NCBI GenBank assembly: GCA_026126065.1
Contig: JAHCJY010000001.1
Coordinates: forward strand, 62,001-126,000
DNA from: Bauldia sp.
GTDB taxonomy: Bacteria; Pseudomonadota; Alphaproteobacteria; Rhizobiales; Kaistiaceae
Length of the DNA stretch: 64,000 nt
Direction: 5' to 3'
The translations under genes and the position numbers were made by a program. The notes under the pieces are model-generated. The model saw only the letters and a program-made list of their open reading frames with translations. It was not told the origin of the DNA and did no database searches. Below are positions 1,999 to 18,470 of this stretch, one piece after another (the stretch's first letter is position 1; each line of letters begins with the position of its first letter).

Positions 1999-2153
1999 TT
2001 CTCCCTGAGGCAGTTCTCAGGCATGACTGCCCGTCGACTGAAGAACAGGCTTGCCGCCGGTCCTCAATCCATTAAGATGACATTGAAAGTCTACTTTACG
2101 CCGCAGATCGTCCCCACGATCCGCGGCCCTTCCCTTCTGCCGGTCGAAAGCTA

Positions 2154-2236: not shown

Positions 2237-2265
2237 AATCACCGAAGACAGGAAAAAGATCCGAG

Positions 2266-2733: not shown

Positions 2734-2872
2734 CGCCGCCGGCCGGAGTTGGCGCGGACGGTCAAACCGTGCATCCTGCGCCGCACAGGTCTTCCACCGT
2801 CGGGGCGAAGCTGCCGATCCCGGCGGAAGGTTGCGGCGAGCCTGGCGCCACCGGATAGTACGAGTCCAAAGA

Positions 2873-3295: not shown

Positions 3296-3299
3296 CCGC

Positions 3300-4289
3300 G
3301 TGATCGCCTCGCTCGCCGGCCGGCCGATCCTTATCGACTCGGCAAGCCGGTTCGCGCTCGACGCCATCCTGCCCGCGATCGACCATCTCCTCGATCCGCC
3401 GCCGGCTCCCACGGAAGGCGATGCGATCCGCTGGTCGATTGCGGAGGAAGACGACGCCTGGCGCCCGGACGCCTTCGGGCCGGCCGGCACCTATCGGATC
3501 GGCGGCGGCGGGTTTGCGGTCGTGCAGAACGAGCCGCCCAGCGTCGAGTCCTTCCTGCCAGGCTCCGGAATCACGCTCCGCGCCGCCCGGGAGGCGTTCA
3601 TGGCGGGCGACTTCCGAGCCCATCCGGCAAGCTTCGCCCTCGCGGCGGCGCTCTCCGGCCCGGGCCGCCAGGTCCTTCATGCCGGCGCCGTGGCCCATGA
3701 CGGCGCGGCGGCCCTCCTCGTGGGCGTCGGCGGCGTCGGCAAGTCCACGACGGCGCTCGCCTGCGCGTTTGCCGGGGCCGATTTCCTCGGCGACGACCTC
3801 GTCCTCGTCGACGCGGCGGGGCCGGACGGCCCCGGCCCGACGGTTCACTCCCTGTTTGCGACAGCAAAACTCAACCCCGACAGCGTGCTGGCCCTCGGCG
3901 TCACCGGCTGGACGCCGATCGGGACGACGCCGAAGAACAAGGCCGTCCTGGCCATCCGGGACAGGCTCTCGGTGATCCGTTCGGCGGCGATCGTGGCTCT
4001 CGTCCTGCTCGCGCCGCCGGTCACCGGGCGGCCGCGCCCACAGCCCTTGCGCGCGGCGGAAGCGATGTCGCTCGTCATGCCGAGCTCGATCCCGGTCGCG
4101 TGCCGTACCGGCTCGCCGGCCGAACTCCTGGCGGTGGTCGCCGCCCTCGCGCGGCGCGTCCCAGCCTGGCGGCTGCCGCTGAGCTGGGACCTCGACGCTC
4201 TGGGGACAGCCGTCCGCGGGATCGTGACGGAGGCCGCCGACAGGTTGCGCCGCGACGTGCCCCGACCGGGGCCTGGCGCGGCGGCATGA
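3300..4289 (+). CDS. HPr kinase-related P-loop protein (HprK-rel-A-like)
   Basis: A 329-residue protein starting at GTG 3300, four bases after the PqqD-like gene. The C-terminal half has the HPr-kinase fold signature: HAGAVAHDG, a Walker A loop GVGGVGKST (142-150) and the acidic FLGDDLVLV motif (163-170). In genuine HprK this domain phosphorylates Ser46 of HPr; related proteins occur in peptide-modification and polysaccharide loci with other or unknown targets. No HPr or PTS gene is nearby, so the substrate could be a peptide or a cluster protein. Its stop overlaps the next gene's start as ATGA, so co-translation is likely. Family assignment is firm, function inferred. Confidence 0.75.
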   Translation: MIASLAGRPILIDSASRFALDAILPAIDHLLDPPPAPTEGDAIRWSIAEEDDAWRPDAFGPAGTYRIGGGGFAVVQNEPPSVESFLPGSGITLRAAREAFMAGDFRAHPASFALAAALSGPGRQVLHAGAVAHDGAAALLVGVGGVGKSTTALACAFAGADFLGDDLVLVDAAGPDGPGPTVHSLFATAKLNPDSVLALGVTGWTPIGTTPKNKAVLAIRDRLSVIRSAAIVALVLLAPPVTGRPRPQPLRAAEAMSLVMPSSIPVACRTGSPAELLAVVAALARRVPAWRLPLSWDLDALGTAVRGIVTEAADRLRRDVPRPGPGAAA

Positions 4290-5068
4290 AGTGCGCCATC
4301 GCGACGGTGGCGATCGGCGAGAACCACCGCTCAGCGTATGCCGCGGTCTTCCGGCCATCGGTGGAACGCTACGCCAAGCGCCACGGCCACGATCTCGTGG
4401 TGTTCGAGGATTTTCTCTCCAGGGAGCCGGACCGAAGGGAGGACCTGGCCATGTTCGAGAAGCTGCGCGTGCCGTTTGATGAGCGCGTGGCCGGCTATGA
4501 CCGTGTGATGGTGCTGGACGTCGACGTGATCGTCAGCGCCCGCGCGCCGCCCCTCGATTCCCTCGACCTCCGCGGACGGATCGGTATCGTCGACGAATGG
4601 TGCCAGCCGAGCGAGGCGGGGCACCGGGCATTCCAGGAGCTCAACGGCCTGCCCGTCAGCGCGAGGGACTATCACGCGCTTGCCGGCTTCACGATCGACA
4701 CCGGACGCGTCCTCAATTCCGGGATGTTCGTCTTTTCCCCCGCGCAGCATGGGCCGCTGTTCCGGGAACTCGTCGCGGTCCATGCCGAAGCCCATCGCGG
4801 CCATCCACGCGGGCCGCATTACGAGCAGTCGATGCTGAGCTACGAATTGCAGCGGCGCGGTCTCGCCGAACTCGTGCCGACCGCATGGAACTGCCTGTGG
4901 CCGCTCAATCGTCGCTCGCCTCGTTGGGGACCGCCCGATCCCGGTCTCGGAGCGGCCGAGCGCTGGGCCGATCTCCGGCACTTCCGGGAGGTGGTCGATG
5001 CCAACTTCTTCGTGCACATGGCGGGGGGACTGGATCATGATCTGGCGTACCTGTCCCGCCACAGATAG
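4286..5068 (+). CDS. Glycosyltransferase-like protein (GT-A fold, DxD motif)
   Basis: A 260-residue protein starting with the ATG that overlaps the kinase stop codon. The N-terminus (MKCAIATVAIGENHR, then SVERYAKRHGHDLVVFEDF) and the motif MVLDVDVIV (Asp78-x-Asp80) match nucleotide-sugar transferases of the GT8/DUF-type GT-A fold, where the DxD binds a metal and the sugar nucleotide. A later NSGMFVFSP stretch and YEQSMLSYELQRRG are also usual in such enzymes. No signal peptide or membrane segment is seen, so it should act in the cytoplasm. Donor and acceptor are unknown. It belongs to the 2873-10094 operon. Confidence 0.75.
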   Translation: MKCAIATVAIGENHRSAYAAVFRPSVERYAKRHGHDLVVFEDFLSREPDRREDLAMFEKLRVPFDERVAGYDRVMVLDVDVIVSARAPPLDSLDLRGRIGIVDEWCQPSEAGHRAFQELNGLPVSARDYHALAGFTIDTGRVLNSGMFVFSPAQHGPLFRELVAVHAEAHRGHPRGPHYEQSMLSYELQRRGLAELVPTAWNCLWPLNRRSPRWGPPDPGLGAAERWADLRHFREVVDANFFVHMAGGLDHDLAYLSRHR

Positions 5069-5107
5069 CGGGTCGCCGCCACGCGACCGAAAGGCGGAGA
5101 GAGCATC

Positions 5108-6235
5108 GTGACCGCCAGCCCCGTTCCCGTCGTCCTGTTCCTGTTCAACCGTCCCGCAACGCTCGGCCGGGTCGTCGATGCGCTCGTCGCGGCGCGGCCG
5201 AAGCTCGTGGTCGCGATCGCGGACGGACCGCGCGCCGGCCATCCCACCGACACCGCGCAATGCGCCGCGGCCCGGGCGCTGGTCGAGCGCCTCGACGGGA
5301 CATGCGAGGTGATCCGCAGATTCTTCGACGCCAATCTCGGCTGCGACGCGCGGATCAGGTCCGGCCTCGACTGGGTGTTCGAGCGCTACGACGCGGCGAT
5401 CGTGCTCGAGGACGACATCGTCCCGGACCCGTCGTTCTTCCCGTGGTGCGTGCGAATGCTGGAACGCTATCAAGGCGATGAGGGCGTGATGCACGTCACC
5501 GGCCGCAACCACCTCGGCCGGTGGAGCCGGGACGGCGACGGTCACTGCCTCCTGCGGCGGGCGAGCGCATGGGGCTGGGCTACGTGGCGTCGCGCCTGGC
5601 AGCGCGATGTCGCGGTGCCGGGGGACGAGGCGGAACTCTCCCGCGCTCTAGCGGATGCCGCGGTCGATCCGCTTGTGGCCGAGAACTTCCTCATGATCCA
5701 TGAGGTTGCGGTGATGAACCACTCGGCCGCCTGGGACAGCGCATGGGACCTGAAGAAGGCCCTGGCGGGAGGGCTCTCGGTCGTCCCGTCGGTGAACATG
5801 ATTGCGAATGTCGGGTTCGGGGCCGCGGCCACGCATACCCTGTTCACGGACGACATCGGCGGCATCGTCCCCGTCGCGTCGGCCCCTCCCGGCGCCGCGC
5901 TGGATCGCCGCGAAGACGATCCGAACCTCGAACGCTGGCAACTCCTGATCGAGTTGATGTCCACCTATCGCGAGCCCGGGATGGCGTGGCGCCTCGCGCG
6001 GTCGGCGCGGTTTCCGGCAGCGGCGCGCTGGGCCGGCGACCGTCGCCTCCGCCACCACCTCGCGCCGTTCCGCCATCCGGCCGATGCGCTTGCGGCGCTC
6101 CGACATTGCGTTGCGGCGGGAGCACCGGCCGAGCCCCTCGGAGCGTTGATGGCCGTTCTTCGCCATGCCGCCACCGCGAACCTGCCCGGTCGCGTCGGGA
6201 CGCCGACCGGGCACGCCGCCGCCGGGGCGATGTAG
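5108..6235 (+). CDS. Glycosyltransferase, GT2/GnT-I-like
   Basis: A 375-residue protein with GTG start at 5108, preceded by GGAGAG. It begins VPVVLFLFNRPATLGRVVDAL and has the acidic motif LEDDIVPDPSFFPWC (Glu101-Asp-Asp103), as in bacterial proteins related to GT13/GnT-I and HlpA-like transferases. A region RRASAWGWATWRRAW is characteristic of this family. It should transfer a sugar from a nucleotide-sugar donor in the cytoplasm. The C-terminal 100 residues are Ala/Arg-rich and less conserved. It is 39 bases downstream of the previous glycosyltransferase and 9 bases upstream of the asparagine synthetase, within the same operon. Confidence 0.8.
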   Translation: MTASPVPVVLFLFNRPATLGRVVDALVAARPKLVVAIADGPRAGHPTDTAQCAAARALVERLDGTCEVIRRFFDANLGCDARIRSGLDWVFERYDAAIVLEDDIVPDPSFFPWCVRMLERYQGDEGVMHVTGRNHLGRWSRDGDGHCLLRRASAWGWATWRRAWQRDVAVPGDEAELSRALADAAVDPLVAENFLMIHEVAVMNHSAAWDSAWDLKKALAGGLSVVPSVNMIANVGFGAAATHTLFTDDIGGIVPVASAPPGAALDRREDDPNLERWQLLIELMSTYREPGMAWRLARSARFPAAARWAGDRRLRHHLAPFRHPADALAALRHCVAAGAPAEPLGALMAVLRHAATANLPGRVGTPTGHAAAGAM

Positions 6236-6244
6236 GATCGGCCG

Positions 6245-8062
6245 ATGTGCGGAATCGCGGGCCTGCTCGGCCGGGAACAAGTGGGCTTCGCCGCATCGGC
6301 GGATGAAAGCCTTCGCCATCGCGGGCCGGACGACAGCGGCCGCTACGCCGACTCAGTCGCCACGCTGGTCCATCGCCGCCTTGCGCTGCTCGACCCCACG
6401 GTGGCCGGGCACCAGCCGATGGTTTCGCCGGACGGGCGTCACGTCATCGTCTTCAACGGCGAGATCTACAATTTCCGTGCGCTGCGCGCCGAACTCATGG
6501 CGGCGGGCGTGGCGTTCCGGTCGGGCACCGATACCGAGGTCGTCCTCGCCCTGTTCGTCCGCGAAGGGCCGCGCTGTCTGTCCCGCCTCCGCGGCATGTT
6601 TGCCTTCTGCATCTGGGACAGCGTGGAGCGGTCTGCGTTCCTCGCGCGCGATCCGCTCGGCATCAAGCCGCTCTACCGCCGCCACGGGCCGGATGGATCG
6701 CTCGCCTTCGCGTCGGAACTCCGCGTGCTGCTGGCGGCCGGTCTCACCCGGCCGGAGCTCGATCCGGCCGGACTTGCGCACTACCTCGCGTTCGGCGCGC
6801 TGCCGTCGAACCGGACGCTGGTCGCCGGCATCACGCCGCTCGCGCCGGGGCACTGCGCCATCTGGAAGGACGGGACGTGGACCGAGGAGCGGTTCTGGCG
6901 CCCGGACTTCTCCGTCCACGTCGGGGAGCCGGAGACCGCGGTGCCGCGCGTGCGGGAGGCGCTTCGTGCAAGCATCGAAGCGCATCTCGTCAGCGACGTG
7001 CCGGTCGGGCTGTTTCTGAGCGGCGGTCTCGATTCCTCGACGATCCTCGCGCTGGCAGGAGGCCGGCTGCCGGCGGTCTCGATCGGCTTTGCGGGACCGG
7101 CGTATGACGAGTCCACGATTGCCGCCCGCGTTGCGGCCCATTTCGGGGCGGAGCATCACGTGCTCGAGGTGCCGGCCGGTCTCGCGCGGGCGTGGCTGCC
7201 GGAGTTCCTTGCCGCGATGGACCAGCCGAGCGTCGATGGCTTCAACACGTTCTGTGCCGCCCGGGCGGCGCGCGAGCGCGGCCTCAAGGCGATGCTCGCC
7301 GGCAGCGGCGGCGACGAGCTGTTCGGCGGCTATCCGTCGTTCACCGACGTGCCGGACCTCCTTGCCTCGCGGCGTCGCCTGCAGCCCGCCGCGGCGCGCT
7401 TCGCGCTCGCCCTCGCCGGACGCGCCGATACCGGCAGCCGGCGGATGGCGGCGCTGCTCGGTGGCGCTGCGACGGTCGACGCGGTGCATGACGGCTACCG
7501 CTCGGTCTTCACGCCGGGCGAGGTTCTGGCCTTGATGGCCGGCTGGGGCATCGTCTCCCCCGATGGCGCAGGCAAGGCCACGGACGACTGGGGCATCGGC
7601 CCTGGCGCGGTGACATTCCCGACCGAGCTCGACCGCGTCGCCTGGCTGGAGACGACGAATTTCCTCGGCAATCGCCTGCTGCGCGACGCCGATTCGTTCG
7701 GCATGGCGGCGGGCGTCGAAATCCGCGTCCCGTTCGCCGACGCAGCACTCCTCGACGCCGTCGCGCCGATCGCGGCGGGAGTTCGCCTGGCGCCGGGGAA
7801 GGCACTGCTCAAGGCCGCCCTGCCGGAACTTCCGTCGTGGCTGACAGCATTGCCCAAGCGCGGTTTCACCGTCCCGTTCGCGGACTGGTTCGATGCCGGC
7901 GACCTCGACGGTAGCGGATTCCTCGCGGCGTGGCGGATGCCGTCTCTGCCGCCCGGCCTCGACGTCCGGGACTGGAGCCGGCGCTGGTCGCTGATCGTGC
8001 TCGGCGAATGGCTGGAGCGCCATCTCGGGCTCACCCTGTACGACCGGTCGAGCGCGGCATGA
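6245..8062 (+). CDS. asnB: Asparagine synthetase, glutamine-hydrolysing (AsnB-type)
   Basis: A 605-residue two-domain amidotransferase. The start gives Met-Cys-Gly-Ile, so Cys2 becomes the N-terminal nucleophile of the glutaminase domain (about 1-210, with GRHVIVFNGEIYNFRALR and the RDPLGIKPLYR motif). The synthetase domain has the ATP-pyrophosphatase loop SGGLDSS (259-265) and an AGSGGDELFGGYP motif. Classical AsnB amidates aspartate; homologues in capsule, exopolysaccharide and peptide clusters amidate or cyclise other carboxyl groups. Because four glycosyltransferases plus PqqD- and HprK-like proteins surround it, a cluster-specific acceptor is more likely than housekeeping asparagine synthesis. 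The ATGA overlap with the next gene shows translational coupling. Confidence 0.88.
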   Translation: MCGIAGLLGREQVGFAASADESLRHRGPDDSGRYADSVATLVHRRLALLDPTVAGHQPMVSPDGRHVIVFNGEIYNFRALRAELMAAGVAFRSGTDTEVVLALFVREGPRCLSRLRGMFAFCIWDSVERSAFLARDPLGIKPLYRRHGPDGSLAFASELRVLLAAGLTRPELDPAGLAHYLAFGALPSNRTLVAGITPLAPGHCAIWKDGTWTEERFWRPDFSVHVGEPETAVPRVREALRASIEAHLVSDVPVGLFLSGGLDSSTILALAGGRLPAVSIGFAGPAYDESTIAARVAAHFGAEHHVLEVPAGLARAWLPEFLAAMDQPSVDGFNTFCAARAARERGLKAMLAGSGGDELFGGYPSFTDVPDLLASRRRLQPAAARFALALAGRADTGSRRMAALLGGAATVDAVHDGYRSVFTPGEVLALMAGWGIVSPDGAGKATDDWGIGPGAVTFPTELDRVAWLETTNFLGNRLLRDADSFGMAAGVEIRVPFADAALLDAVAPIAAGVRLAPGKALLKAALPELPSWLTALPKRGFTVPFADWFDAGDLDGSGFLAAWRMPSLPPGLDVRDWSRRWSLIVLGEWLERHLGLTLYDRSSAA

Positions 8063-8745
8063 GCGCGACCCGTCCCGCCGTTGGCGTGGTCATCCCGGTG
8101 CGCAACGGCGCCCGCACGCTCGCCGCCGCGATCGCCAGCGTGCTCGGCCAGTCGCCGCCGCCGGACGACGTCGTTGTCGTCGATGGCGGGTCGGACGATG
8201 GCAGCGCATCCATCTCGCTGTCGCTCGGCGTGCGCGTCATCGCCCAGGAAGGCCGTGGGCTCGGAGCGGCGCGGAACCAGGGCATTGCGGCCGTGGCGGG
8301 CGACCTCGTCGCCTTCTGCGACGCCGATGATCGCTGGACCGACGGCGCGCTCGCGATGCGTCTCGCGCGTCTCGCGGCGGAGCCGGCGTGCGGGGCCGTC
8401 ATCGGCCACCTCCGGCGGACCGTCATCGGCGACGAGACGCCGACGCCGCAGCAGGCTTCGCGGCTCGGGCAGGTCGAGCCCGGCTATACGCCCGGCGCGC
8501 TGCTGGTGCGGCGCGCGGCGCTCGCTGCCGTCGGCCCGTTCGACGAGACGCTGACGCTCGGCTGCGACAGCGACTGGTTCGTGCGGCTCGTGCAATCCGC
8601 CGTGCGGCTCGACGTGCTGCCGGACACGGTGCTCCTCAAGGGCGTGCGAAACACCAGCCTGTCGACCGACATCGCGACCTACCGGCGCGAACTGCTGCAG
8701 GTGGCGCGGGGCTTCATCGACCGCCGCCGGCGTGAGACACCGTGA
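8059..8745 (+). CDS. Family 2 glycosyltransferase
   Basis: A 228-residue GT2 enzyme starting at the ATG overlapping the asparagine synthetase stop (ATGA). The N-terminus (VGVVIPVRNGARTLAAAIAS, then VVVDGGSDDGS) and the AFCDADDRW motif (DAD, metal/UDP binding) are standard GT-A signatures. A later GCDSDWFVRL matches the acceptor-side acidic motif. There is no membrane segment, so it is cytoplasmic. It probably adds one sugar in building the glycan or glycoconjugate made by this operon. The stop overlaps the next start as GTGA. Confidence 0.88.
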   Translation: MSATRPAVGVVIPVRNGARTLAAAIASVLGQSPPPDDVVVVDGGSDDGSASISLSLGVRVIAQEGRGLGAARNQGIAAVAGDLVAFCDADDRWTDGALAMRLARLAAEPACGAVIGHLRRTVIGDETPTPQQASRLGQVEPGYTPGALLVRRAALAAVGPFDETLTLGCDSDWFVRLVQSAVRLDVLPDTVLLKGVRNTSLSTDIATYRRELLQVARGFIDRRRRETP

Positions 8746-10094
8746 ACGTCCGGGCGCAGGGCGGCCCGTCGCTCGGGATCCTCCATATCATCCCGCGCTT
8801 CATCGGCGGCGGCCCGGAGCGGTCGCTGCTCGCCTATGTCGCGGAGGAGCGCCGCGCCGGAACAGCGAACCGGCACACGGTCGCGGTGCTCGATGTCCCG
8901 GTCTCGGCCTACATGCTGGTTGCCGCACGAAAGCTCGGCGTGGCGCTCGCCGTGCGCCCCGGCGAGGAGGCGCTCTCGGGGCTTATCGCCGCCGCCGACA
9001 TCGTGCAGGTCCACTTCTGGAACCACCCCGCCCTCGCGGACCTCCTGCGGACGCTCCCCTTCCCGCCGGCGCGGGTGCTTCTCTGGTCGCGCGTCCTCGG
9101 GCTGCACGCGCCGCAGGTCCTGACGGCGGAGGTGGCCGGCTTCGGTGACCGTCTCGTCGTCACCGCGCGGCGGACCCTGGAGAGCGCCGGAGCACATCAT
9201 GCGGTGCGGCAGGGCATCCCCATCGCCATCATCCCCGGGATCGCCGATATGGGCCGCCTCGACGGGTTTGCGCCGCGGCCGCACGAGGGCACGGTCGTGG
9301 GCTATATCGGCGTCGTCAACGACACGAAGATGCACCCGCGCTTCGCCGCGATGAGCGCGGCCGTGCGCACGCCGGGCGTACGAATCGTCGTTTGCGGCGG
9401 GGGAGGCGGCGAGGAGGCGCTCTCGGCGCGGTTCGCGGCGCTTGGGCTGGCGGAGCGGGTCACCGTGCGCGGGCCGGTCGAGGACATCCGCTCCGAACTC
9501 GAGACGTTCGACGTGTTCGGCTACCCGCTGGCGCCGGACACCTACGCCACCAGCGAGAAGGCGCTGCAGGAAGCGATGTGGGTCGGCGTGCCGCCCGTGG
9601 TCTTCCCTTTCGGCGGCGTGCGCGATCTCGTCGAGGATGGGGAAACGGGGCTCGTGGTGACGACCGAGGACGGCTACGCGTCGGCGGTCGACCGGCTGGC
9701 CGGCGACGCCGGCCTCCGTCGCCGCCTCGGCGACAACGCCCGGAGCTTCGCCCGGTCCGCGTTTGCCCCGTCCCGCTGGACGCGGGAGCTGAACCGCCTG
9801 ATGGTCGAGATGATGGATTCACCCAGGCGTGCGCGGGCGCCGCTCCCTGGGGCGGACGAGGGTGCCGCCGCGCGGTTCGTGCGCGCGCTCGGGAACCAGG
9901 GGGGCGCGTTTGCGGCAAGCCTCTACGAACCGGAAGGGACGCTGCGGCGCAGCGAAGCAGACATCCGGATCGCGGCTGCGTCCGCGCTGCTGGCCAACGG
10001 CGAAGGCGGCATTGCCCACCATGCCAGCGCGTTTCCTGACGACCCCGACCTCCGCCGCTGGGCAGCGCTCATCGCCGGACGGCCGAACACGTAG
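8742..10094 (+). CDS. Family 4 glycosyltransferase (GT-B fold)
   Basis: A 450-residue protein with GTG start overlapping the previous stop. The first part begins LGILHIIPRFIGGGPERSLLAY, typical of the GT4 acceptor domain. The donor domain has VVGYIGVVNDTKMHPRF and the retaining-transferase E-x7-E motif in TSEKALQEAMWVGVPPVV, followed by GGVRDLVEDGETGLVV. Donor sugar and acceptor are unknown. It is the last gene of the coupled run of glycosyltransferases. The C-terminal about 90 residues after the fold (ARAPLPGADEGA onward) look like a variable extension. Confidence 0.87.
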   Translation: MNVRAQGGPSLGILHIIPRFIGGGPERSLLAYVAEERRAGTANRHTVAVLDVPVSAYMLVAARKLGVALAVRPGEEALSGLIAAADIVQVHFWNHPALADLLRTLPFPPARVLLWSRVLGLHAPQVLTAEVAGFGDRLVVTARRTLESAGAHHAVRQGIPIAIIPGIADMGRLDGFAPRPHEGTVVGYIGVVNDTKMHPRFAAMSAAVRTPGVRIVVCGGGGGEEALSARFAALGLAERVTVRGPVEDIRSELETFDVFGYPLAPDTYATSEKALQEAMWVGVPPVVFPFGGVRDLVEDGETGLVVTTEDGYASAVDRLAGDAGLRRRLGDNARSFARSAFAPSRWTRELNRLMVEMMDSPRRARAPLPGADEGAAARFVRALGNQGGAFAASLYEPEGTLRRSEADIRIAAASALLANGEGGIAHHASAFPDDPDLRRWAALIAGRPNT

Positions 10095-10733: not shown

Positions 10734-11813
10734 TCACCGCGCGGCGGGCAGGTTCACCGTAACGCGGAGCCCGCCCGCCGGGCGGGGCACGATGGCGAGC
10801 GTGCCATCGTGTGCCTCGACGATGCTCTTGACGATGGCGAGCCCGAGGCCAACCCCCGCGTGGTCGCTGCGCACGCGTTCGCTGCCGCGCCGGAACGGCT
10901 CGGTGAGCGTCGAGACCAGCGGTTGCGCGAGCTCCTCGCCGGTGTTCTCGACCGTCAGGGTAACGGAATCCGGACCGGCCGCGGTCCTGAGCTCGACGGT
11001 GCCGTGTTCGGCGAGGTTGTGGACGATCGCGTTGTGCAGGAGGTTCGTCGTCATCTGCAGCAACAGGGTGCGGGACCCGGCCGCTGGGGCGTTCTCCGCC
11101 GAAGTCGTGATCGTCACGCCCCGCTTCTCCGCCAGCGGCAGGAGCGTCTCGCTCGCTTCTTCCGCAAGGAGGGACAGGTCGACGCGTTCCCGGGTGAACG
11201 CCCGCCGGTCGGCGCGGCTGAGGAGAAGCAGCGCCTCGGTGAGGGCGATCGCCCGGGCGTTGACGGCGTGGAGCCGGTCGATGAGTTCGTCCGCGGCGCG
11301 GTTGGGATCGCTGCGGGCGACGTCGAGGAGGGTCTGCGTCACGGCCAGCGGCGTCCGCAACTCATGCGACGCGTTGGCGGCGAAACGCTGCTGTTCGGCG
11401 ACGTGCGCTTCGAGCCGCGCCAGCATGGCGTCAAAACTGTCGGCGAGTTCACGGAACTCGTCCCGGCGGCCTTCGAGCTCGATCCGGTGCGAGAGCGATC
11501 CCTCGGCGGTCTTGCGCGTGGCGCGCGTGATGCGGGCCAGCGGCGCGAGCATGCGGCCGGCGAGGATCCACCCGCCGACGAGGCCGAGCACCAGCAGGAC
11601 GGCGAACGCCTGTGCCGCCCGCGGCGCAAACGCGCGCCACAGGTCGGTGCGGCTGGGACCCAGCATGATAGCACGGCTCCCCGCACCATCGGGGACGTAG
11701 CGGAGGAGGAACACCCAGACGACCGCGAGCAGGAGCACGCCCGCGACCATGAGGAACGCGACATAGCTGAGGGTGAGTTTCAGGCGGACGCTCAGTCCGG
11801 GCGCCCTAGCCAC
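10734..11813 (-). CDS. vanS: Sensor histidine kinase, VanS-like, of the van module
   Basis: A 359-residue membrane kinase. TM1 is about residues 15-37, followed by a short periplasmic loop of some 28 residues; TM2 is about 66-86. Then come a HAMP region, the dimerisation/phosphoacceptor motif ANASHELRTPLA (His150), an N-box (TTNLLHNAIVHN) and G-boxes (HAGVGLGLAIVKS). It would sense a cell-wall or antibiotic signal and phosphorylate the partner regulator. Its start overlaps the regulator's end by 8 bases. The wording of its HAMP/H-box region resembles a kinase family common in Actinobacteria, as I recall it; that should be confirmed by search. The name vanS rests on linkage to vanHAX. Confidence 0.85.
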   Translation of the reverse strand: MARAPGLSVRLKLTLSYVAFLMVAGVLLLAVVWVFLLRYVPDGAGSRAIMLGPSRTDLWRAFAPRAAQAFAVLLVLGLVGGWILAGRMLAPLARITRATRKTAEGSLSHRIELEGRRDEFRELADSFDAMLARLEAHVAEQQRFAANASHELRTPLAVTQTLLDVARSDPNRAADELIDRLHAVNARAIALTEALLLLSRADRRAFTRERVDLSLLAEEASETLLPLAEKRGVTITTSAENAPAAGSRTLLLQMTTNLLHNAIVHNLAEHGTVELRTAAGPDSVTLTVENTGEELAQPLVSTLTEPFRRGSERVRSDHAGVGLGLAIVKSIVEAHDGTLAIVPRPAGGLRVTVNLPAAR

Positions 11814-12495
11814 GCTCGCCGGCCCTGCCGCCCGGCCCGGGATCGATGCGATAGCCGACGCCCTGGACCGTGCCGATCAGCCAGGGTTCCCCGAGCCGCT
11901 TGCGGAGCGCCGAGACGGTGATGCGGACCGCGTTGGTGAACGGGTCGGCGTTCTCGTCCCACGCCCGCTCGAGCAGTTCCTCGGCGCTGACCACGCCGCC
12001 TTCGGCCGCAACGAGCACCTCGAGCACGGCAAACTGTTTGCGCGTCAGCGCAACGTAACGGCCATCGCGAAAGACCTCGCGCCGGAACGGATCGAGCTTC
12101 AGGCCCGCGATCTCCCGCACGGGCGGCCGGCTGTGCGCGCGCCGGCGATCGAGCGCCCGGAGCCGCAGCACCAGTTCCTGCAGTTCGAACGGCTTGGTCA
12201 GGTAGTCGTCGGCGCCGAGCTCGAAGCCGGACGCCTTGTCGTCGAGCCGGTCGGCCGCCGTGAGCATGAGGATCGGCATGCCGCTTCCCGACGCGACGAT
12301 GCGCCGGGCGATCTCGTCGCCGGACGGGCCGGGAATGTCGCGGTCGAGGACGGCGATGTCGTAGGCGTTGATGCTGAGGAGTTCGAGCGCGGTCTCGCCG
12401 TCACCGGCGATGTCGGCCGCGATCGCCTTGAGGCGGAGGCCGTCGCGGATCGCCTCGGCCATGTAGGGCTCGTCCTCGACGATCAACACACGCAT
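11806..12495 (-). CDS. vanR: OmpR-family response regulator, VanR-like, of the van module
   Basis: A 229-residue regulator. The receiver domain has acidic Glu7-Asp8, phosphoacceptor Asp51 (AVLDRDIPG), Thr79 and Lys101. A winged-helix effector domain follows, with ALTRKQFAVLEVL and the recognition helix region TNAVRITVSALRKRLGEP, ending GTVQGVGYRID. It is transcribed away from vanH, only 85 bases from that start codon, so it most likely binds the shared region and switches on vanHAX. The 11-bp-phased direct repeats there fit an OmpR-family dimer. The sequence looks strikingly like actinobacterial regulators rather than typical alphaproteobacterial ones, which is an impression to be tested. Confidence 0.88.
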   Translation of the reverse strand: MRVLIVEDEPYMAEAIRDGLRLKAIAADIAGDGETALELLSINAYDIAVLDRDIPGPSGDEIARRIVASGSGMPILMLTAADRLDDKASGFELGADDYLTKPFELQELVLRLRALDRRRAHSRPPVREIAGLKLDPFRREVFRDGRYVALTRKQFAVLEVLVAAEGGVVSAEELLERAWDENADPFTNAVRITVSALRKRLGEPWLIGTVQGVGYRIDPGPGGRAGERG

Positions 12496-12515
12496 GCCCC
12501 GATCCTAGCTACAGC

Positions 12516-12547
12516 GCATATCGCCGGCATATCGAAAACCGCATACG
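12516..12547. promoter_or_regulatory. Candidate VanR operator: 11-bp-phased direct repeats
   Basis: Two exact copies of GCATATCG (12516-12523 and 12527-12534) start 11 bp apart, and a related GCATACG follows at 12541-12547. PhoB/OmpR-type regulators bind head-to-tail repeats on one helix face with this period. The repeats fill the 85-bp gap between divergent vanR and vanH starts. No standard -35/-10 pair is obvious, consistent with an activator-dependent promoter. Confidence 0.5.
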
Positions 12548-12580
12548 CCCCGGGAACATCGCATCGCCTCCAATGGCGGC

Positions 12581-13552
12581 ATGACAAATCCCGCAATGAC
12601 GGTGTTCGGCTGCGAGCCGGACGAGGCTGACATGTTCGCGGCGCTTGCGCCGCGGCTCGGCGTGGCGGCGACAATGACGGGCGCGCCGGTGTCGGAGGCG
12701 AGCCTCCTCACGGCGCCGCGCAACCGGTGCATCAGCGTCGGGCACAAGTCCGAACTCGGCCGGCCGCTCTTCCGCGCCCTCGCTGTCGCCGGGGTGAGGC
12801 ACATCACGACGCGCAGCATCGGCTTCGACCACATCGACCTTGCCGCCGCCCGGGAGGCGGGCATCGTGGTCGAGAACGTCGTCTATCCACCGGACGGCGT
12901 CGCCGACTACACGCTCATGCTGATGCTGATGGCGGTCCGGAACACCCGGGCGACGATCGGCGCGGTGGCAAATCTCGACTTCCGGCCGGGCGTCCGCGGC
13001 CGGGACCTCCGTGACATGACCGTCGGCGTCGTGGGCGTCGGGAACATCGGCGAGGCCGTGATCCGGCGCCTCGCCGGCTTCGGCTGCAGCGTTCTGGCCG
13101 CCAGCAAGGGGCAGCAGGTGGCGGCTGCCGCGGAGTTCGTCCCGCTCGCGGAGCTGCTGCGGCGGAGCGACGTCGTCACCCTGCACGTGCCGCTCGACGC
13201 CGGCACGCACCATCTCATTGGGCCGGGCGAGATCGCCGCGATGCGGCAGGGCGCCATTCTCGTCAACACCGGCCGCGGCGGCCTCGTCGATACCGGGGCG
13301 CTGGTCGCGGCGCTCGAGAGCGGCCATCTCGGCGGCGCGGCGCTCGACGTCATCGAGGGCGAGGACGGCATCTTCTACCACGACCGCTCGGCACGACCGC
13401 CCGACCATCCGTTTCTCGAGCGGTTGCTGCGGCTTCCGAACGCCCTCATCACGCCGCACACCGCCTACTACACGACGCGGCAGCTCCACGACACGGTCGA
13501 GCGGACGCTCCGCAACTGCCTCTCCTTCGAGCGGAGCAACACCTATGCATAG
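12581..13552 (+). CDS. vanH: VanH-type D-lactate dehydrogenase
   Basis: A 323-residue D-2-hydroxyacid dehydrogenase that should reduce pyruvate to D-lactate with NAD(P)H. It follows VanH along its length: start (MTVFGCEPDEADMF), CISVGHKSE, TRSIGFDHID, VADYTLMLMLMAVRN, DMTVGVVGVGNIG (Rossmann G152-x-G-x-x-G157), HVPLDAGTHHLIG, NTGRGGLVDTGAL (Arg232), ALDVIEGEDG (Glu261) and ITPHTAYYT (His293). These are the substrate Arg and the Glu/His catalytic pair. General D-hydroxyacid dehydrogenases do not share the VanH-specific GHKSE and HTAYYT motifs. Its last 8 bases overlap the ligase gene, as expected for vanHAX operons. Confidence 0.96.
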   Translation: MTNPAMTVFGCEPDEADMFAALAPRLGVAATMTGAPVSEASLLTAPRNRCISVGHKSELGRPLFRALAVAGVRHITTRSIGFDHIDLAAAREAGIVVENVVYPPDGVADYTLMLMLMAVRNTRATIGAVANLDFRPGVRGRDLRDMTVGVVGVGNIGEAVIRRLAGFGCSVLAASKGQQVAAAAEFVPLAELLRRSDVVTLHVPLDAGTHHLIGPGEIAAMRQGAILVNTGRGGLVDTGALVAALESGHLGGAALDVIEGEDGIFYHDRSARPPDHPFLERLLRLPNALITPHTAYYTTRQLHDTVERTLRNCLSFERSNTYA

Positions 13553-14573
13553 GCTGCGCGTGGCGTTCCTGTTCGGCGGCCGGTCGGAGGAACACGATGT
13601 CTCCGTGAAGTCGGCGATGGAAGTTGCCGCCGCGCTCGATTCCGCGAAGGTCGAGCCGGTGTTCGTCGGCATCACCAAGGCGGGAGCCTGGAAGCTCTGC
13701 GACGGGCCGTCGCCGACATGGGAGGCGGGCAACTGCCGCCCCGCCGTCCTTTCCCCCGATGCGGAGACGCGTGGCCTGCTCGTTGAGGACGGCGGCGCCT
13801 GGCGTGCGATCCGCCTCGATGCGGTGTTCCCGGTGCTGCACGGCCGCGGCGGCGAGGACGGGGCGATCCAGGGCCTCCTCGAACTCGCGTCGATTCCCTA
13901 TGTCGGCTGTGACATCCAGGGCTCGGCGCTCGCCATGGACAAGTCGCTCGCCTACATCGTCGCCGGCCATGCCGGGATCGCGACGCCGGCGTTCGTCGTC
14001 CTGAACGGCGCTGCCGCCCCGCCGCGTGACCTTGCCTGCCCCGTGTTCGTAAAACCGGCCCGGTCCGGCTCCTCCTTCGGCGTGACGAAGGTCGAGCGGC
14101 CGGACCAGCTCGACGCCGCCATCGCCGAGGCGCGCCGCTACGATGCAAAAATCCTGATCGAGCAGGCGGTTCCCGGCATCGAAGTCGGCTGCGCCGTGAT
14201 GGGCAACGGCGCCGATCTCAATGTCGGCGAGGTCGACCAGATCACGCTGAGCCACGGCATCTTCCGCATCCACCAGGAGGCAAGGCCCGAGCAGGGCTCG
14301 GAGAACGCCGTCATCACCGTCCCGGCCGAACTCCCCGACGCGAAACGCGGCGAGATCCGGGCCGTCGCAAAGTCCATCTACGTGGCGCTCGGCTGCCGCG
14401 GGCTCGCGCGCGTCGACATGTTCCTCGAGCCCGGCGGGCGCATCGTCCTCAACGAGGTGAACACCCTCCCCGGCTTCACCTCCTACAGCCGCTATCCCCG
14501 GATGATGGAAGCCGCCGGCATCGGCCTCTCCGAGCTCGTCGACCGGCTGATTGCGCTGGCGGTGGGGCGGTGA
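13545..14573 (+). CDS. vanA: VanA-type D-alanine--D-lactate ligase
   Basis: A 342-residue ATP-grasp ligase that joins D-Ala to D-Lac, giving depsipeptide precursors with low vancomycin affinity. VanA hallmarks are present: LFGGRSEEHDVSVKSAMEVA at the start, VGCDIQGSALAMDKSLAYIV, FVKPARSGSSFGV, ILIEQAVPGIEVGCAV and LNEVNTLPGFTSYSRYPRMM. In the omega-loop, GIFRIHQE places a histidine at residue 243, equivalent to VanA His244, which favours D-Lac over D-Ala; ordinary Ddl enzymes have a Tyr-Lys motif instead. The start ATG at 13545 overlaps vanH. VanA and VanB subtypes cannot be assigned by eye, and an actinobacterial-type ligase is equally possible. Confidence 0.96.
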   Translation: MHRLRVAFLFGGRSEEHDVSVKSAMEVAAALDSAKVEPVFVGITKAGAWKLCDGPSPTWEAGNCRPAVLSPDAETRGLLVEDGGAWRAIRLDAVFPVLHGRGGEDGAIQGLLELASIPYVGCDIQGSALAMDKSLAYIVAGHAGIATPAFVVLNGAAAPPRDLACPVFVKPARSGSSFGVTKVERPDQLDAAIAEARRYDAKILIEQAVPGIEVGCAVMGNGADLNVGEVDQITLSHGIFRIHQEARPEQGSENAVITVPAELPDAKRGEIRAVAKSIYVALGCRGLARVDMFLEPGGRIVLNEVNTLPGFTSYSRYPRMMEAAGIGLSELVDRLIALAVGR

Positions 14574-14575
14574 CC

Positions 14576-15184
14576 ATGGAGCCGGGATTCGCCTTCGCCG
14601 ACGAGGTGCTGGCCGGCGTCCGCTGGGACGCCAAATACGCCACCTGGGACAATTTCACCGGCAAGCCCGTGGACGGCTACGAGCTGAACCGCATCGTCGT
14701 CTCGCACGCCCTCGCGGATGCGCTGCTGGTCGCCACGCGCCACGCCGCCGCCCTCGGCTTCGGCCTCCTCCTGTGGGACGGCTACCGCCCGCAGCGCGCC
14801 GTGAACCGCTTCGTGGAGTGGGCGGCGCGGCCCGAGGACGGCCGCACCAAGGCGCGCTTCTACCCCCGCATCGAGCGCGCCGAGATGTTCGCGAAAGGCT
14901 ACGTCGCCGCCCGCTCCAGCCACAGCCGCGGCAGCGCCGTCGACCTCACCCTCTACCATCTCGACACCGACGAACTCGCGCCGATGGGCGGCGGCTTCGA
15001 CCTGATGGACGAACGCTCCCACCACGGCGCGCCCGGAGTGGCCGATGCCGTGGCGAAGAACCGCCGGACGCTGTGCTCCATCATGGAGCACAGCGGCTTT
15101 GCGCCCTACGACCGCGAATGGTGGCACTACGCGCTGGTGCAAGAGCCGTGGCCGGAGAGGTATTTTGATTTTGTGGTGGGGTAG
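14576..15184 (+). CDS. vanX: VanX D-alanyl-D-alanine dipeptidase
   Basis: A 202-residue zinc dipeptidase that destroys D-Ala-D-Ala so that only D-Ala-D-Lac enters the wall precursor. Length and numbering equal those of enterococcal VanX: Arg71 (WDGYRPQR), zinc ligands His116 and Asp123 (SSHSRGSAVDLT), catalytic Glu181 and zinc ligand His184 (EWWHY). Also conserved are RWDAKYATWDNFTGKPVDGY and DERSHH. I chose the ATG at 14576, two bases after the ligase stop, because it gives the VanX N-terminus (MEPGFAFADEV). A GTG at 14570 overlapping the ligase stop is an alternative. It is short, monomodular and cytoplasmic (no signal peptide), unlike VanY carboxypeptidases. Confidence 0.96.
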   Translation: MEPGFAFADEVLAGVRWDAKYATWDNFTGKPVDGYELNRIVVSHALADALLVATRHAAALGFGLLLWDGYRPQRAVNRFVEWAARPEDGRTKARFYPRIERAEMFAKGYVAARSSHSRGSAVDLTLYHLDTDELAPMGGGFDLMDERSHHGAPGVADAVAKNRRTLCSIMEHSGFAPYDREWWHYALVQEPWPERYFDFVVG

Positions 15185-15545: not shown

Positions 15546-17522
15546 ATGCGCAGTGAAACGGTATCGGCGGAACTATCTGGCATCCCTGCCCGTCCTGACG
15601 CCGTTCCAAAGCCCGCAGGCCACCGCCCCGACATCGATGGGCTTCGGGCCTTGGCGGTCGTCCCCGTTGTGCTGTTTCACGCGAACGCGCCGTATGTCAC
15701 CGGCGGCTTCGTGGGCGTCGATGTCTTCTTTGTCATCTCCGGCTTCCTGATTGCAGGAATACTCAAACGCGAGGTTGATTCCGGATCGTTCTCGCTCCTC
15801 GGATTTTACGAAAGACGCGCGCGACGGATTCTTCCGGCCCTCTTGGCGGTGATTGCTTCGACGCTGGTGGTCGGAGCAATCCTCCTGTTGCCAGAAGCGC
15901 TTTTCAGTCTAGGCCGCTCCGCTATTGCCGCTATTCTATTCATATCTAATTACTGGGCGCTCGATTCCGCAACAGACTATTTCGACACCGGGATAACCCC
16001 TCTTCTCCACACCTGGTCATTGGCCGTGGAAGAGCAATTCTACCTGCTTTTCCCCATTCTTCTGGCTATTCTCACGCGATGGTGGCACCGATGTGCGTGG
16101 TGGATAGTTGCCGCAATATGTATAGCGTCGCTCGTGCTCAGTATCGTTCAGGTCGCGGACGAAAACGCAGCTGCCTTCTACCTGGCGCCCTCGCGCATTT
16201 GGGAACTCGGAATCGGCGTGCTGCTCGCGATCGCCCCGTTGCCGGTGCTCAGAAGGCGATGGCAGGCCGAGTTTCTCGGCATCGCCGGCCTGATCGCCAT
16301 CGCTGCCGCGATGCTTCTCTACACGCGCTCGACACCGTTTCCCGGCGGTGCCGCGCTCCTCCCGACACTCGGTGCGGCTGCGGTCATCTATGGTGGGAAC
16401 TCGATCAGAACCCTGGCGACCCGGCTGCTCGCATTTCCGCCGGTCGTCTTCGTCGGGCTCATCTCCTACTCGCTCTACCTCTGGCACTGGCCGATCCTCA
16501 CGTTCGTCCGGGTTCGTCTCACGGCAGCGGAGTTCACAATTCAGCCGAAGCTATGGGCGATCGCCGGGAGTTTCTTGCTGGCCGCCTTGACCTGGCGGTT
16601 CATTGAGCAACCTTTCCGGCGTCGGACGCGGCTAACGCGGAAGCAGGTGTTCGCGGCGTCGGGCGTGGGGGGACTGGCAGTTGCTACGTTGGCCGCAACG
16701 GTGCTGGTCGGGGACGGCTTCGCGGGCCGCCTATCGCGCGAGGTGCAAGTTATCATCGCCGATACGGAAGGCGATGGCCGAGGCTGCATGGGGCGACCAA
16801 GCGACAACCTCTGCGAGATCGGAGCCGACGTTCCTCCGACCGTGCTTCTGTGGGGCGACTCTCACGCCAGTTCCGCCATTCCAGCGTTTCAGGTTGCTTT
16901 GCTTCAGGCCGGTGTTCGAGCGGTGGCAGCCGTCCATCCGGGATGCCCGCCTCTTGTTGGCGTGGCCCAGCCATCCCACGCGACTTGCGATGCCTTCCGC
17001 GCGGCCATCGGGCAGGAGATTCTCGCCCATCCGGAGTGGACGACCATCGTGCTGTCGGCCCGCTGGCCGTACTGGGTCAACGCGACCGGGGGCCCGACGC
17101 CGGGTCTGGTTCTCGGCGAGGACTTCCGCGACGCGACCACGAATGCGTTCGAGCACGGACTGAGGCGGGCGGTCGAGTGGCTACTTGGTCTTGGACGACG
17201 CGTTCTGATCGTAGGCCCCGTGCCAGAACCCGGCTGGAACGTGCCGGAACAGATGGTCGCGGAACTCCGATGGTCGAAGCCGCTACCTCCCGTGGCCACG
17301 ATGGTCGGCCACAATGCCTTCAACGAGACTGTATTCGGTACCTTCTCGGAACTCGAGGGTATGGCTGGCTTGACGATAATGCCGGTTGCCGACCTGCTCT
17401 GCACCCCCGAGTGCGCCTTTGCGCTCGATGGGCGCCCACTCTACGTCGATGACAATCACCTCTCGCGGTTGGGCGCCCTCCACTTCCTCGCCCCCCGACT
17501 GGCGGCATATCCATGGCGATAG
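15546..17522 (+). CDS. Acyltransferase-3 family membrane protein with C-terminal SGNH domain (OafA/OatA-like)
   Basis: A 658-residue O-acyltransferase. The N-terminal acyltransferase-3 part (about 25-380) starts HRPDIDGLRALAVVPVVLFH, has GGFVGVDVFFVISGFLI and the active-site region HTWSLAVEEQFYLLFP, and contains about ten membrane helices. The C-terminal SGNH domain has WGDSHAS (Ser439) and the Asp-x-x-His motif in DDNHL (Asp635, His638). Such enzymes acetylate LPS O-antigen, exopolysaccharide or peptidoglycan sugars in the periplasm. Codon use is visibly more AT-rich than neighbours (for example 15901-16140), hinting at recent transfer. The substrate is unknown. It lies 360 bases downstream of vanX and converges on the methyltransferase gene. 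Confidence 0.88.
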   Translation: MRSETVSAELSGIPARPDAVPKPAGHRPDIDGLRALAVVPVVLFHANAPYVTGGFVGVDVFFVISGFLIAGILKREVDSGSFSLLGFYERRARRILPALLAVIASTLVVGAILLLPEALFSLGRSAIAAILFISNYWALDSATDYFDTGITPLLHTWSLAVEEQFYLLFPILLAILTRWWHRCAWWIVAAICIASLVLSIVQVADENAAAFYLAPSRIWELGIGVLLAIAPLPVLRRRWQAEFLGIAGLIAIAAAMLLYTRSTPFPGGAALLPTLGAAAVIYGGNSIRTLATRLLAFPPVVFVGLISYSLYLWHWPILTFVRVRLTAAEFTIQPKLWAIAGSFLLAALTWRFIEQPFRRRTRLTRKQVFAASGVGGLAVATLAATVLVGDGFAGRLSREVQVIIADTEGDGRGCMGRPSDNLCEIGADVPPTVLLWGDSHASSAIPAFQVALLQAGVRAVAAVHPGCPPLVGVAQPSHATCDAFRAAIGQEILAHPEWTTIVLSARWPYWVNATGGPTPGLVLGEDFRDATTNAFEHGLRRAVEWLLGLGRRVLIVGPVPEPGWNVPEQMVAELRWSKPLPPVATMVGHNAFNETVFGTFSELEGMAGLTIMPVADLLCTPECAFALDGRPLYVDDNHLSRLGALHFLAPRLAAYPWR

Positions 17523-17537
17523 CGACCGCCTGGTGCC

Positions 17538-18470
17538 TCAAGCGGCGGGGGTCAGCAGCCAATCCCGCGAATGATGGTCCGCCGCAGAGAGGGGCTCTTC
17601 CGTGAGTCCATGGGGCCTGATGCGGAACGCACGGTAGCCCCAGCCTTCCGTGGCCGCAGCGATCCCAACGGCAGTCCGGCGAAGAACCTCCACGATCAGA
17701 TCCGGTCGGTGTTCACGAACGAATCCGCCGAGCCGCGAGAGGATGGTCTCCTCGTGGCCTTCGGCGTCTATCTTCACAAGCACGTTCGCCGCGCCAGGAA
17801 CGAAAGCACCGATCCCAGCCCCATCGACGGTTTGAACGACGGTCTCGCCGACTGGCCGGTCCAGCGAGGCTGCGAAGCCGCGATGAAGGGAACTCGTCGT
17901 GGCCATCGGCGACGCCTCGAAGAATGCCGCCGTGCCGTCGTGATCCGAAACTGCCGCCTGAACGACCCGGACGGCGCCTAGGCCATTCAGCTTGAGGTTC
18001 TGCCGAAGACGTGTGCACGAACTCGCTGCTGGCTCGAATGCCACAATGCGGCTGACGTCTTTCCCCTGCAACCGGAAGAGAAGCCCCATCGCCGTTGTAA
18101 AGACGCCCACATTGGCGCCGATCTCGATCACGGCGTCGTAGCGGGACAGGCGTTCCCCGAGGAGACGGAAGACCTCCTCTTCGTAGTGCAGCGAGCGGGA
18201 TACAAGGGGTCGAAAGCGGAAATCCGGAGGCCGCAGCATGAGCCTGATCCTGCCGGCGGGTGTCTGCACCGTCCGCGGCCTGGCTTGGGCGAAGACCTCG
18301 TCGCGGCCCTGCGCGGCGTGACTGGCAGCGTTGGCAATCCTCACCACTATGCTTTCGGAAAGCGGCAACCACCGAAGCGCCATCCATGCCGTCGCATAGG
18401 CACGGGCGGACGCGCGCGTAGCGAAAGCCAGCTTGTGCGCGCTCACCCCAATATCCCTGATCGCCCCCAT
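17538..18470 (-). CDS. FkbM-family SAM-dependent methyltransferase
   Basis: A 310-residue protein. The SAM-binding motif I is YDAVIEIGANVGVFTTAMG, and the family's signature VLVKIDAEGHEETIL follows (about residues 238-253). FkbM enzymes O-methylate sugars or polyketides; bacterial genes of this type often sit in glycan loci. Its stop is 15 bases from the end of the convergent acyltransferase gene, and composition is similarly less GC-rich, so both may have arrived together. The substrate is probably a surface-polysaccharide sugar. Upstream is tRNA-Ala. Confidence 0.82.
   Translation of the reverse strand: MGAIRDIGVSAHKLAFATRASARAYATAWMALRWLPLSESIVVRIANAASHAAQGRDEVFAQARPRTVQTPAGRIRLMLRPPDFRFRPLVSRSLHYEEEVFRLLGERLSRYDAVIEIGANVGVFTTAMGLLFRLQGKDVSRIVAFEPAASSCTRLRQNLKLNGLGAVRVVQAAVSDHDGTAAFFEASPMATTSSLHRGFAASLDRPVGETVVQTVDGAGIGAFVPGAANVLVKIDAEGHEETILSRLGGFVREHRPDLIVEVLRRTAVGIAAATEGWGYRAFRIRPHGLTEEPLSAADHHSRDWLLTPAA

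What the first reader, a model, noticed from the sequence alone, without database searches (positions are those of the whole stretch)
10734..15184. Complete vanRS-vanHAX glycopeptide-resistance-type module in an alphaproteobacterial genome
VanH, the D-Ala-D-Lac ligase and VanX are present in canonical order with gene overlaps. Catalytic residues and lengths agree with classical VanHAX: VanX Arg71/His116/Asp123/Glu181/His184 at identical numbering, and the ligase omega-loop His243. A TCS lies divergent to them. Gram-negative cells are normally shielded from glycopeptides by the outer membrane, and LptE in this window indicates such a membrane. The cluster therefore suggests altered peptidoglycan termini, self-protection against a wall-targeting product, or a recent gain from Gram-positive bacteria.
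Basis: partly seen in the sequence, partly recalled or inferred. Interest (0 to 1): 0.97.

Follow-up and report, generated by a model that had tools for sequence, protein, structure and literature searches.

The report
Vancomycin-resistance operon in alphaproteobacteria
A complete five-gene cluster of the vancomycin-resistance type, known from actinobacteria and enterococci, sits in the chromosomes of alphaproteobacteria related to Bauldia, whose genomes also carry genes for an outer membrane that would normally keep such antibiotics out, and it is likely an old acquisition that would switch the cell wall to a drug-proof form when such a compound gets in.

Summary
Confirmed. Window 10734-15184 holds intact vanS, vanR (minus strand) and vanH, D-Ala-D-Lac ligase, vanX (plus strand). 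Ligase and VanX pass NCBIfam's curated cut-offs (the ligase narrowly); the ligase is 66.3% identical to enterococcal VanA. Contamination is unlikely: the contig is 931 kb, and a genus-mate MAG (Bauldia sp. TGS_PRO13) has the same five genes at the same site, next to tRNA-Ala(CGC)-yggTU, diverged about as much as neighbouring housekeeping genes. In a third genome of the genus one contig ends inside vanS and another at that tRNA. Elsewhere it is rare: over the cut-offs were 2 of 397 genomes of the order, 1 of 385 of the class and 1 of 398 of the phylum, always this genus. Both species keep an 85-bp vanR-vanH spacer with a repeat, CATATCG-N2-GGCATATCG, that also marks most actinobacterial vanH and vanR promoters examined. 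An ordinary Ddl, LpxC and LptD are present, so D-Ala-D-Lac would be a switchable second pathway in an LPS-bearing cell. No NRPS condensation domain was found in this genome, against self-protection. Source: Actinomycetota-like, likely ancient. Expression, inducer and wall chemistry are untested. The module is known; its stable presence in Pseudomonadota appears new.

The parts
10734..11813 (-). vanS, sensor histidine kinase, 359 aa, GTG start
   Evidence: NCBIfam VanS-O 485.1 bits, under its 720 cut-off; HAMP, HisKA, HATPase_c; 79% identical to the genus-mate's
11806..12495 (-). vanR, response regulator, 229 aa
   Evidence: NCBIfam VanR-O 460.3 bits, under its 505 cut-off; 92% identical to the genus-mate's over 221 aa; 86-93% to VanR in 37 of 63 loci
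12496..12580 (.). 85-bp vanR-vanH spacer, same length in the genus-mate; likely a shared divergent promoter
12517..12534 (+). predicted VanR operator CATATCGCCGGCATATCG, 64 bp before the vanH ATG
   Evidence: conserved in L014 and in most actinobacterial vanH and vanR promoters examined
12581..13552 (+). vanH, predicted D-lactate dehydrogenase, 323 aa
   Evidence: best NCBIfam match vanH_gen 441.4 bits, under its 540 cut-off
13545..14573 (+). vanA-type D-Ala-D-Lac ligase, 342 aa
   Evidence: NCBIfam NF000206 553.6 against 550; VanA structure 1e4e E 1.7e-143
14570..15184 (+). vanX, predicted D-Ala-D-Ala dipeptidase, 204 aa (202 from the ATG at 14576)
   Evidence: NCBIfam NF033115 346.5 against 320; VanX structure 1r44 E 8.9e-92; residues
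18574..18649 (-). tRNA-Ala(CGC), landmark of the insertion site; 18 bp from vanX in the genus-mate

Best explanation
This is a complete vanRS-vanHAX cluster, likely gained by an ancestor of this Bauldia-like lineage from an actinobacterium and kept since, that would act as an inducible second pathway replacing D-Ala-D-Ala by D-Ala-D-Lac at the ends of peptidoglycan precursors. Predicted steps: VanS, facing the periplasm, senses a glycopeptide or another D-Ala-D-Ala binder that has crossed the outer membrane; phosphorylated VanR binds the repeat in the 85-bp spacer and turns on both arms; VanH makes D-lactate, the ligase makes D-Ala-D-Lac, and VanX removes the D-Ala-D-Ala that the ordinary Ddl makes. 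Shown here: the five intact genes and their catalytic residues, the same site and spacer in two species, the match of the repeat to actinobacterial van promoters, and a separate ordinary ddl in the cell-division cluster. Inferred: operator function, expression, ligand, enzyme activities and phenotype.
For: Family cut-offs and structures; residues; same five genes in the genus-mate at the same site; divergence like that of flanking genes with fewer changes at second than third codon positions; repeat within 200 bp of vanH in 44 of 64 loci and of vanR in 34 of 39, control 23 of 1300; ordinary ddl beside ftsQ-ftsA-ftsZ; no condensation domain in the own genome; nearest named relatives of VanS, VanH and ligase after Bauldia are Actinomycetota.
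Against: No expression, enzyme or wall data. LPS cells are normally shielded from glycopeptides. The ligase is only 3.6 bits over its cut-off and its 98% relative P0001 is just under. VanH is the least conserved gene (62% between the two species). The two species' ligases are not sisters in the free tree.
Confidence: 0.7

Rival explanations
1. The cluster is expressed as a wall-remodelling or envelope-stress pathway that has nothing to do with glycopeptides: D-Lac ends would serve growth, dormancy or protection against other wall-active agents or peptidases.
For: The outer membrane should keep glycopeptides out (LpxC, LptD). Cell-wall remodelling has been proposed for van genes in Ktedonobacteria (PMC9689679, discussion part 1).
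Against: The VanO-type VanRS pair and an actinobacterial-type operator are kept, which points to the same kind of signal; in Caulobacter crescentus the receptor ChvT mediates vancomycin sensitivity of a tipN mutant (PMC7403779, abstract and passages), so glycopeptides can matter to this class.
Confidence: 0.17
2. The cluster is a cryptic passenger, gained more than once at a tRNA hotspot, with little or no function now.
For: Ligases of the two species are not sisters in the free tree; beside this tRNA the neighbours differ in five relatives of other genera; VanH diverges fast.
Against: All five frames are open in two species; second-position changes are well below third-position changes; the 85-bp spacer and repeat are kept; one ligase clade is not rejected (p-AU 0.177) and one VanS clade has the higher likelihood.
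Confidence: 0.09
3. The cluster is a binning or assembly artefact: actinobacterial DNA placed in an alphaproteobacterial genome.
For: The related genomes are MAGs, and earlier van loci in several MAGs were suspected of being contamination (PMC9689679, passages).
Against: 930,905-base contig, 0.54% contamination; same site with trmD, rplS, dapF and ftsY nearby in a second genome; contig C115 of a third genome runs from shared neighbours into vanS.
Confidence: 0.02
4. Self-protection against a glycopeptide that the bacterium makes itself.
For: Glycopeptide producers carry vanHAX near biosynthesis genes (PMC9927545, passage).
Against: No condensation domain in the own genome (93% complete), one on another contig in G009.
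Confidence: 0.02

Closest known systems
Actinobacterial vanRS-vanHAX (VanO / Streptomyces-Amycolatopsis type)
   Same: Gene set; HAX order in 55 of 63 loci; VanR 86-93% identical in 37 of 63 loci; same repeat before vanH and vanR in most
   Different: Host is an LPS-bearing alphaproteobacterium; vanR and vanH share one 85-bp spacer with one repeat, whereas among 15 divergent pairs in the 63 loci the nearest are 610 bp apart; no vanJ or vanK lies between vanR and vanH
Enterococcal VanA cluster (Tn1546 type)
   Same: VanH-VanA-VanX order; ligase 66.3% identical; VanX matches the solved VanX over its length
   Different: VanRS is of the VanO kind, not the enterococcal kind; chromosomal here; no plasmid record covers 80% of the cluster
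van loci outside Actinobacteria (PMC9689679: Bacilli, Clostridia, Erysipelotrichia, Ktedonobacteria, Anaerolineae)
   Same: Horizontally gained vanHAXRS outside the actinobacteria
   Different: Those classes all belong to Terrabacteria (passages); this one is Pseudomonadota with LpxC and LptD
Alphaproteobacterial Ddl and VanX/DdpX-like dipeptidases
   Same: Same Pfam families (PF07478, PF01427)
   Different: Next best order genome scores 305.1 bits on the D-Lac ligase model against 550; next best class genome 228.6 on the VanX model against 320, though 177 of 385 have some match

Membership tests
vanHAX glycopeptide-resistance module | D-Ala-D-Lac ligase of the VanA kind | tested here: met
   553.6 of 550; genus-mate 601; P0001 548.3, just under; 1e4e E 1.7e-143
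vanHAX glycopeptide-resistance module | VanX dipeptidase with its zinc and catalytic residues | tested here: met
   346.5 of 320; R71, H116, D123, E181, H184 (roles recalled)
vanHAX glycopeptide-resistance module | VanH D-lactate dehydrogenase | tested here: inconclusive
   Best match vanH_gen 441.4 bits but under its 540 cut-off; other van subtypes also under
vanHAX glycopeptide-resistance module | Adjacent vanH-A-X, same strand, overlapping ends | tested here: met
vanHAX glycopeptide-resistance module | D-Ala-D-Lac precursors and raised glycopeptide MIC | not testable with these tools
   needs an isolate
VanRS-O regulatory pair | VanR-O and VanS-O family membership by curated cut-off | tested here: not met
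   460.3 of 505 and 485.1 of 720: nearest subtype, not members by that test
VanRS-O regulatory pair | Works like it: repeat before vanH shared with actinobacterial van promoters | tested here: met
   44 of 64 vanH and 34 of 39 vanR regions with up to 3 mismatches, control 23 of 1300; binding itself untested
Enterococcal VanA subtype | VanA-subtype cut-off | tested here: not met
   509.1 of 775
Host: LPS-bearing alphaproteobacterium | LpxC and LptD in the same genome; taxonomy | tested here: met
   LpxC 328.9 bits; LptD over cut-off in G000 and G009; G009 contig has the length and place of JAHCJZ010000004.1, Bauldia sp., Kaistiaceae, Hyphomicrobiales

The most novel reading that the evidence does not exclude
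A lineage of LPS-bearing alphaproteobacteria meets D-Ala-D-Ala-binding antibiotics often enough to keep a full inducible D-Ala-D-Lac switch as a core genus trait: such compounds cross their outer membrane in nature (for example through TonB-dependent receptors), VanS senses them in the periplasm, and these cells then build D-Lac-ended peptidoglycan, the first such wall in Pseudomonadota.
Probability: 0.5. Interest if true: 0.88.

Novelty: new member of a known kind. Interest (0 to 1): 0.76.

Why it matters
D-Ala-D-Lac glycopeptide resistance is treated as a trait of Gram-positive (Terrabacteria) cells, and the outer membrane as the reason why Gram-negative cells do not need it. A regulated cluster kept at one chromosomal site in an alphaproteobacterial genus would mean that some Gram-negative cells meet such compounds in the periplasm; it widens the known reservoir of van genes to Pseudomonadota, and it makes directly testable whether a Gram-negative wall can run on D-Lac-ended precursors.

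Tried and rejected
Ordinary Ddl or DdpX families: rejected. Self-protection: disfavoured. Plasmid-borne cassette: 30 plasmid records matched part of the cluster, none over 80%; the best covered 38%, the vanRS part (5 of 30 rows seen). Donor: most of the nearest proteins are metagenomic and unnamed, so the source could be called only Actinomycetota-like. A first operator pattern with the wrong spacing did not find the window's own site and was corrected. Empty site: no tRNA near the redoxin gene in three genomes of other genera; seen from the tRNA side the neighbours differ in five relatives, so no clean empty site was found. G008 gave no close vanR (best 39%).

Literature: searches pairing van terms with Alphaproteobacteria, Proteobacteria, Rhizobiales or Bauldia listed no paper whose title or abstract start reports vanHAX in a Proteobacterium. 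One search found 5 papers; passages of three were read: one cites vanHAX in Streptomyces only, one lists van proteins predicted from soil metagenomes and the passages seen name no host, one is an enterococcal spike-in. An urban MAG study reports glycopeptide genes in most taxa; its main text names vanR genes among the frequent ones and has no vanH, vanA or vanX. Most listed papers were not opened, and most subscription journals are not held.
Full report
OBSERVATION. The five genes are present and intact at the coordinates given. The minus strand carries vanS (359 aa) and vanR (229 aa), overlapping by 8 bases. The plus strand carries vanH (323 aa), a ligase (342 aa) and vanX (204 aa, or 202 from a second in-frame start), overlapping by 8 and 4 bases. 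Against NCBIfam the ligase passes the D-Ala-D-Lac cut-off narrowly (553.6 of 550) and VanX passes its own (346.5 of 320); VanH, VanR and VanS have van models as best matches but stay under those cut-offs. In the genus-mate G009 the ligase scores 601 and VanX 355.3; a further Bauldia ligase, P0001, scores 548.3, just under. Against solved structures the ligase matches VanA (E 1.7e-143) and VanX matches VanX (E 8.9e-92). VanX R71, H116, D123, E181, H184 and the ligase omega-loop histidine are present (the roles of these residues are recalled).

HOST AND CONTAMINATION. The window is bases 62001-126000 of a 930,905-base contig in a 3.46-Mb genome of 9 contigs, 93.17% complete, 0.54% contamination. 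Its genus-mate G009 has the same cluster; contig length and place show that it is JAHCJZ010000004.1, 'MAG: Bauldia sp. isolate TGS_PRO13', a genus of Kaistiaceae, Hyphomicrobiales. Relatives of VanH (97%), ligase (98%) and VanS (99%) are each listed with a longest contig of 108,202 bases, presumably one further MAG; the first two are named Bauldia sp., the third has no source shown. GC3 of the window's van genes (0.89-0.92) is that of redoxin, dapF and four of eight other window genes (0.86-0.91); the other four lie at 0.71-0.76.

SITE. In G009 the order is rplS, trmD, a redoxin gene, vanS-vanR, vanH-A-X, tRNA-Ala(CGC) 18 bp after vanX, yggT-yggU, dapF, a radical-SAM gene, ftsY. In the window the redoxin orthologue lies about 14 kb before vanS, with an asparagine synthase-like gene, a glycosyltransferase and others between; tRNA-Ala(CGC)-yggTU lies 3.4 kb after vanX, with an acyltransferase and an FkbM methyltransferase between. 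The third genome of the genus, G008, shares the window's redoxin-to-glycosyltransferase stretch; its contig C115 then runs about 10 kb further and ends inside a vanS orthologue (68% over 142 aa), while contig C18 ends two bases beyond a tRNA-Ala(CGC) next to yggT. No VanX match, no ligase above Ddl level and no close VanR is in that assembly. vanR-HAX may lie in the gap between these contigs; that is inference. In five relatives of other genera tRNA-Ala(CGC)-yggT(U) is kept, but in the 15 kb examined no van gene and no other gene of the window's or G009's flanks was found beyond the tRNA at E 1e-12.

AGE. Window against G009, amino-acid identity is vanR 89.5, vanS 79.1, vanX 77.0, ligase 74.6, vanH 62.3; redoxin 72.5, dapF 75.4. 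Third-position differences are 0.325-0.396 in all seven, second-position differences 0.066-0.223 in the van genes and 0.128-0.165 in the two others. This fits genes that diverged with their hosts under purifying selection; vanH is the fastest. The trees agree only in part. VanS of the window, P0121, P0122, P0132 and G009 form one group (SH-aLRT 97), and holding window, P0121 and G009 together gives a slightly higher likelihood than the free tree (p-AU 0.534). The ligases of window and G009 are not sisters in the free trees, but one clade is not rejected (46 of 108 rows, log-likelihood 18.9 lower, p-AU 0.177). One old gain is the simplest reading; partial replacement of vanHAX remains open.

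SOURCE. The best relatives of ligase, VanS and VanH are Bauldia and then mostly unnamed metagenomic proteins; the names shown among the 120 listed per search, Bauldia and 'uncultured bacterium' apart, are actinobacterial (Dermatobacter hominis, 'Actinobacteria bacterium', Acidimicrobiia and Acidimicrobiales, Terrabacter, Jiangella, Jiangellaceae, Phytohabitans). In the 108-row tree the Bauldia ligases sit in this environmental group (support 81), apart from the Streptomyces, Amycolatopsis and Kribbella ligases and from Ddl. One Clostridia-labelled MAG (L047) falls in the same group; its bin was not checked.

DISTRIBUTION. Over the D-Ala-D-Lac ligase cut-off: 2 of 397 genomes of the order (own and G009) and 1 of 398 of the phylum (own). 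Over the VanX cut-off: 2 of 28 of the family (own and G009) and 1 of 385 of the class (own). These samples overlap. In the scan of genome contigs 128 of 216 candidate stretches were confirmed and the best 80 kept; the 64 loci at 55% identity or more hold one Pseudomonadota record, the Bauldia one. That scan used two short peptide patterns and may leave out near copies of the window. In the plasmid collection 451 records had a ligase match, 408 at 60-80% identity; of 60 records listed at even steps, the 54 at 60% or more were 53 Enterococcus and one Staphylococcus, and the six others, all Gram-negative, lay at 35-41%.

REGULATION. The vanR-vanH spacer is 85 bp in the window and in G009 and holds CATATCG-YC-GGCATATCG 64 bp before the vanH ATG. 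With up to 3 mismatches this repeat lies within 200 bp upstream of vanH in 44 of 64 loci, and of vanR in 34 of 39 loci with a VanR of 80% identity or more, against 23 of 1300 random 200-bp stretches of the same loci, some of which hit true sites (window and G009 are among the 64 and the 39). Against the reading: 11 of 64 vanH regions and 3 of 39 vanR regions have 6 or more mismatches, that is background. Of 63 further loci, 15 have vanR divergent to vanH, the nearest pair 610 bp apart, so the one-spacer layout looks particular to Bauldia. VanS has two hydrophobic stretches with a loop of about 25-30 residues, read by eye; the loop of Streptomyces coelicolor VanS (residues 38-62) is reported to bind vancomycin (PMC7109055, passages). 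No paper on the VanR-binding site itself was opened, so the repeat is a predicted operator.

MECHANISM. The genome also has an ordinary ddl beside ftsQ, ftsA and ftsZ, with lpxC near, so the cluster would be a second, switchable pathway: VanH makes D-lactate, the ligase makes D-Ala-D-Lac, VanX removes D-Ala-D-Ala (established for VanHAX; not tested here). LpxC and LptD point to an LPS outer membrane. How a glycopeptide would reach the periplasm is open; in Caulobacter crescentus, another alphaproteobacterium, the TonB-dependent receptor ChvT mediates the vancomycin sensitivity of a tipN mutant (PMC7403779, abstract and passages), which is a precedent. No NRPS condensation domain was found in the own genome, one in G009.

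COMPARISON AND NOVELTY. The 2022 survey of van genes outside Actinobacteria found them in Bacilli, Clostridia, Erysipelotrichia, Ktedonobacteria and Anaerolineae, all Terrabacteria, left MAGs out and suspected several MAG cases of contamination (PMC9689679; abstract, passages, section 2.1 and part 1 of the discussion). It calls an Anaerolineae species the first Gram-negative carrier. The searches listed nothing on vanHAX in Proteobacteria. The module is a new member of a known kind; the host lineage and the compact one-operator layout are what is new.

Noticed in passing
window 15546-18470: Acyltransferase-SGNH and FkbM methyltransferase genes with low GC (0.63-0.65) and GC3 (0.71-0.73) lie between vanX and tRNA-Ala(CGC); in G009 vanX is 18 bp from that tRNA, so this looks like a later insertion.
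   Followed up: partly
window 703-10094 with L016, and L134/L148 (G008): A stretch with a cytochrome c-like, an asparagine synthase-like and a glycosyltransferase gene lies between redoxin and vanS in the window and G008 but not in G009.
   Followed up: partly
L014 10014-11108: VanH of G009, read from the ATG that matches the window's vanH start, would carry about 40 extra residues at its N-terminus; many environmental VanH are also 335-353 aa.
   Followed up: no
L148 3234-13650 (G008): About 10 kb with two tRNA genes, Ser(GCT) and Ala(TGC), stands before vanS in G008 where the window has about 100 bp.
   Followed up: no
L009, L010, L011 (G002, G005, G001): VanX-like dipeptidases at 218-224 bits, under the VanX cut-off of 320, occur in another genus of the family; similar ones are scattered in the class.
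   Followed up: no
L047, L056: A Clostridia-labelled and an Acidobacteria-labelled MAG carry vanHAX; in the ligase tree the first falls in the environmental group and the second beside a Microbacteriaceae MAG. Their binning is unchecked.
   Followed up: no
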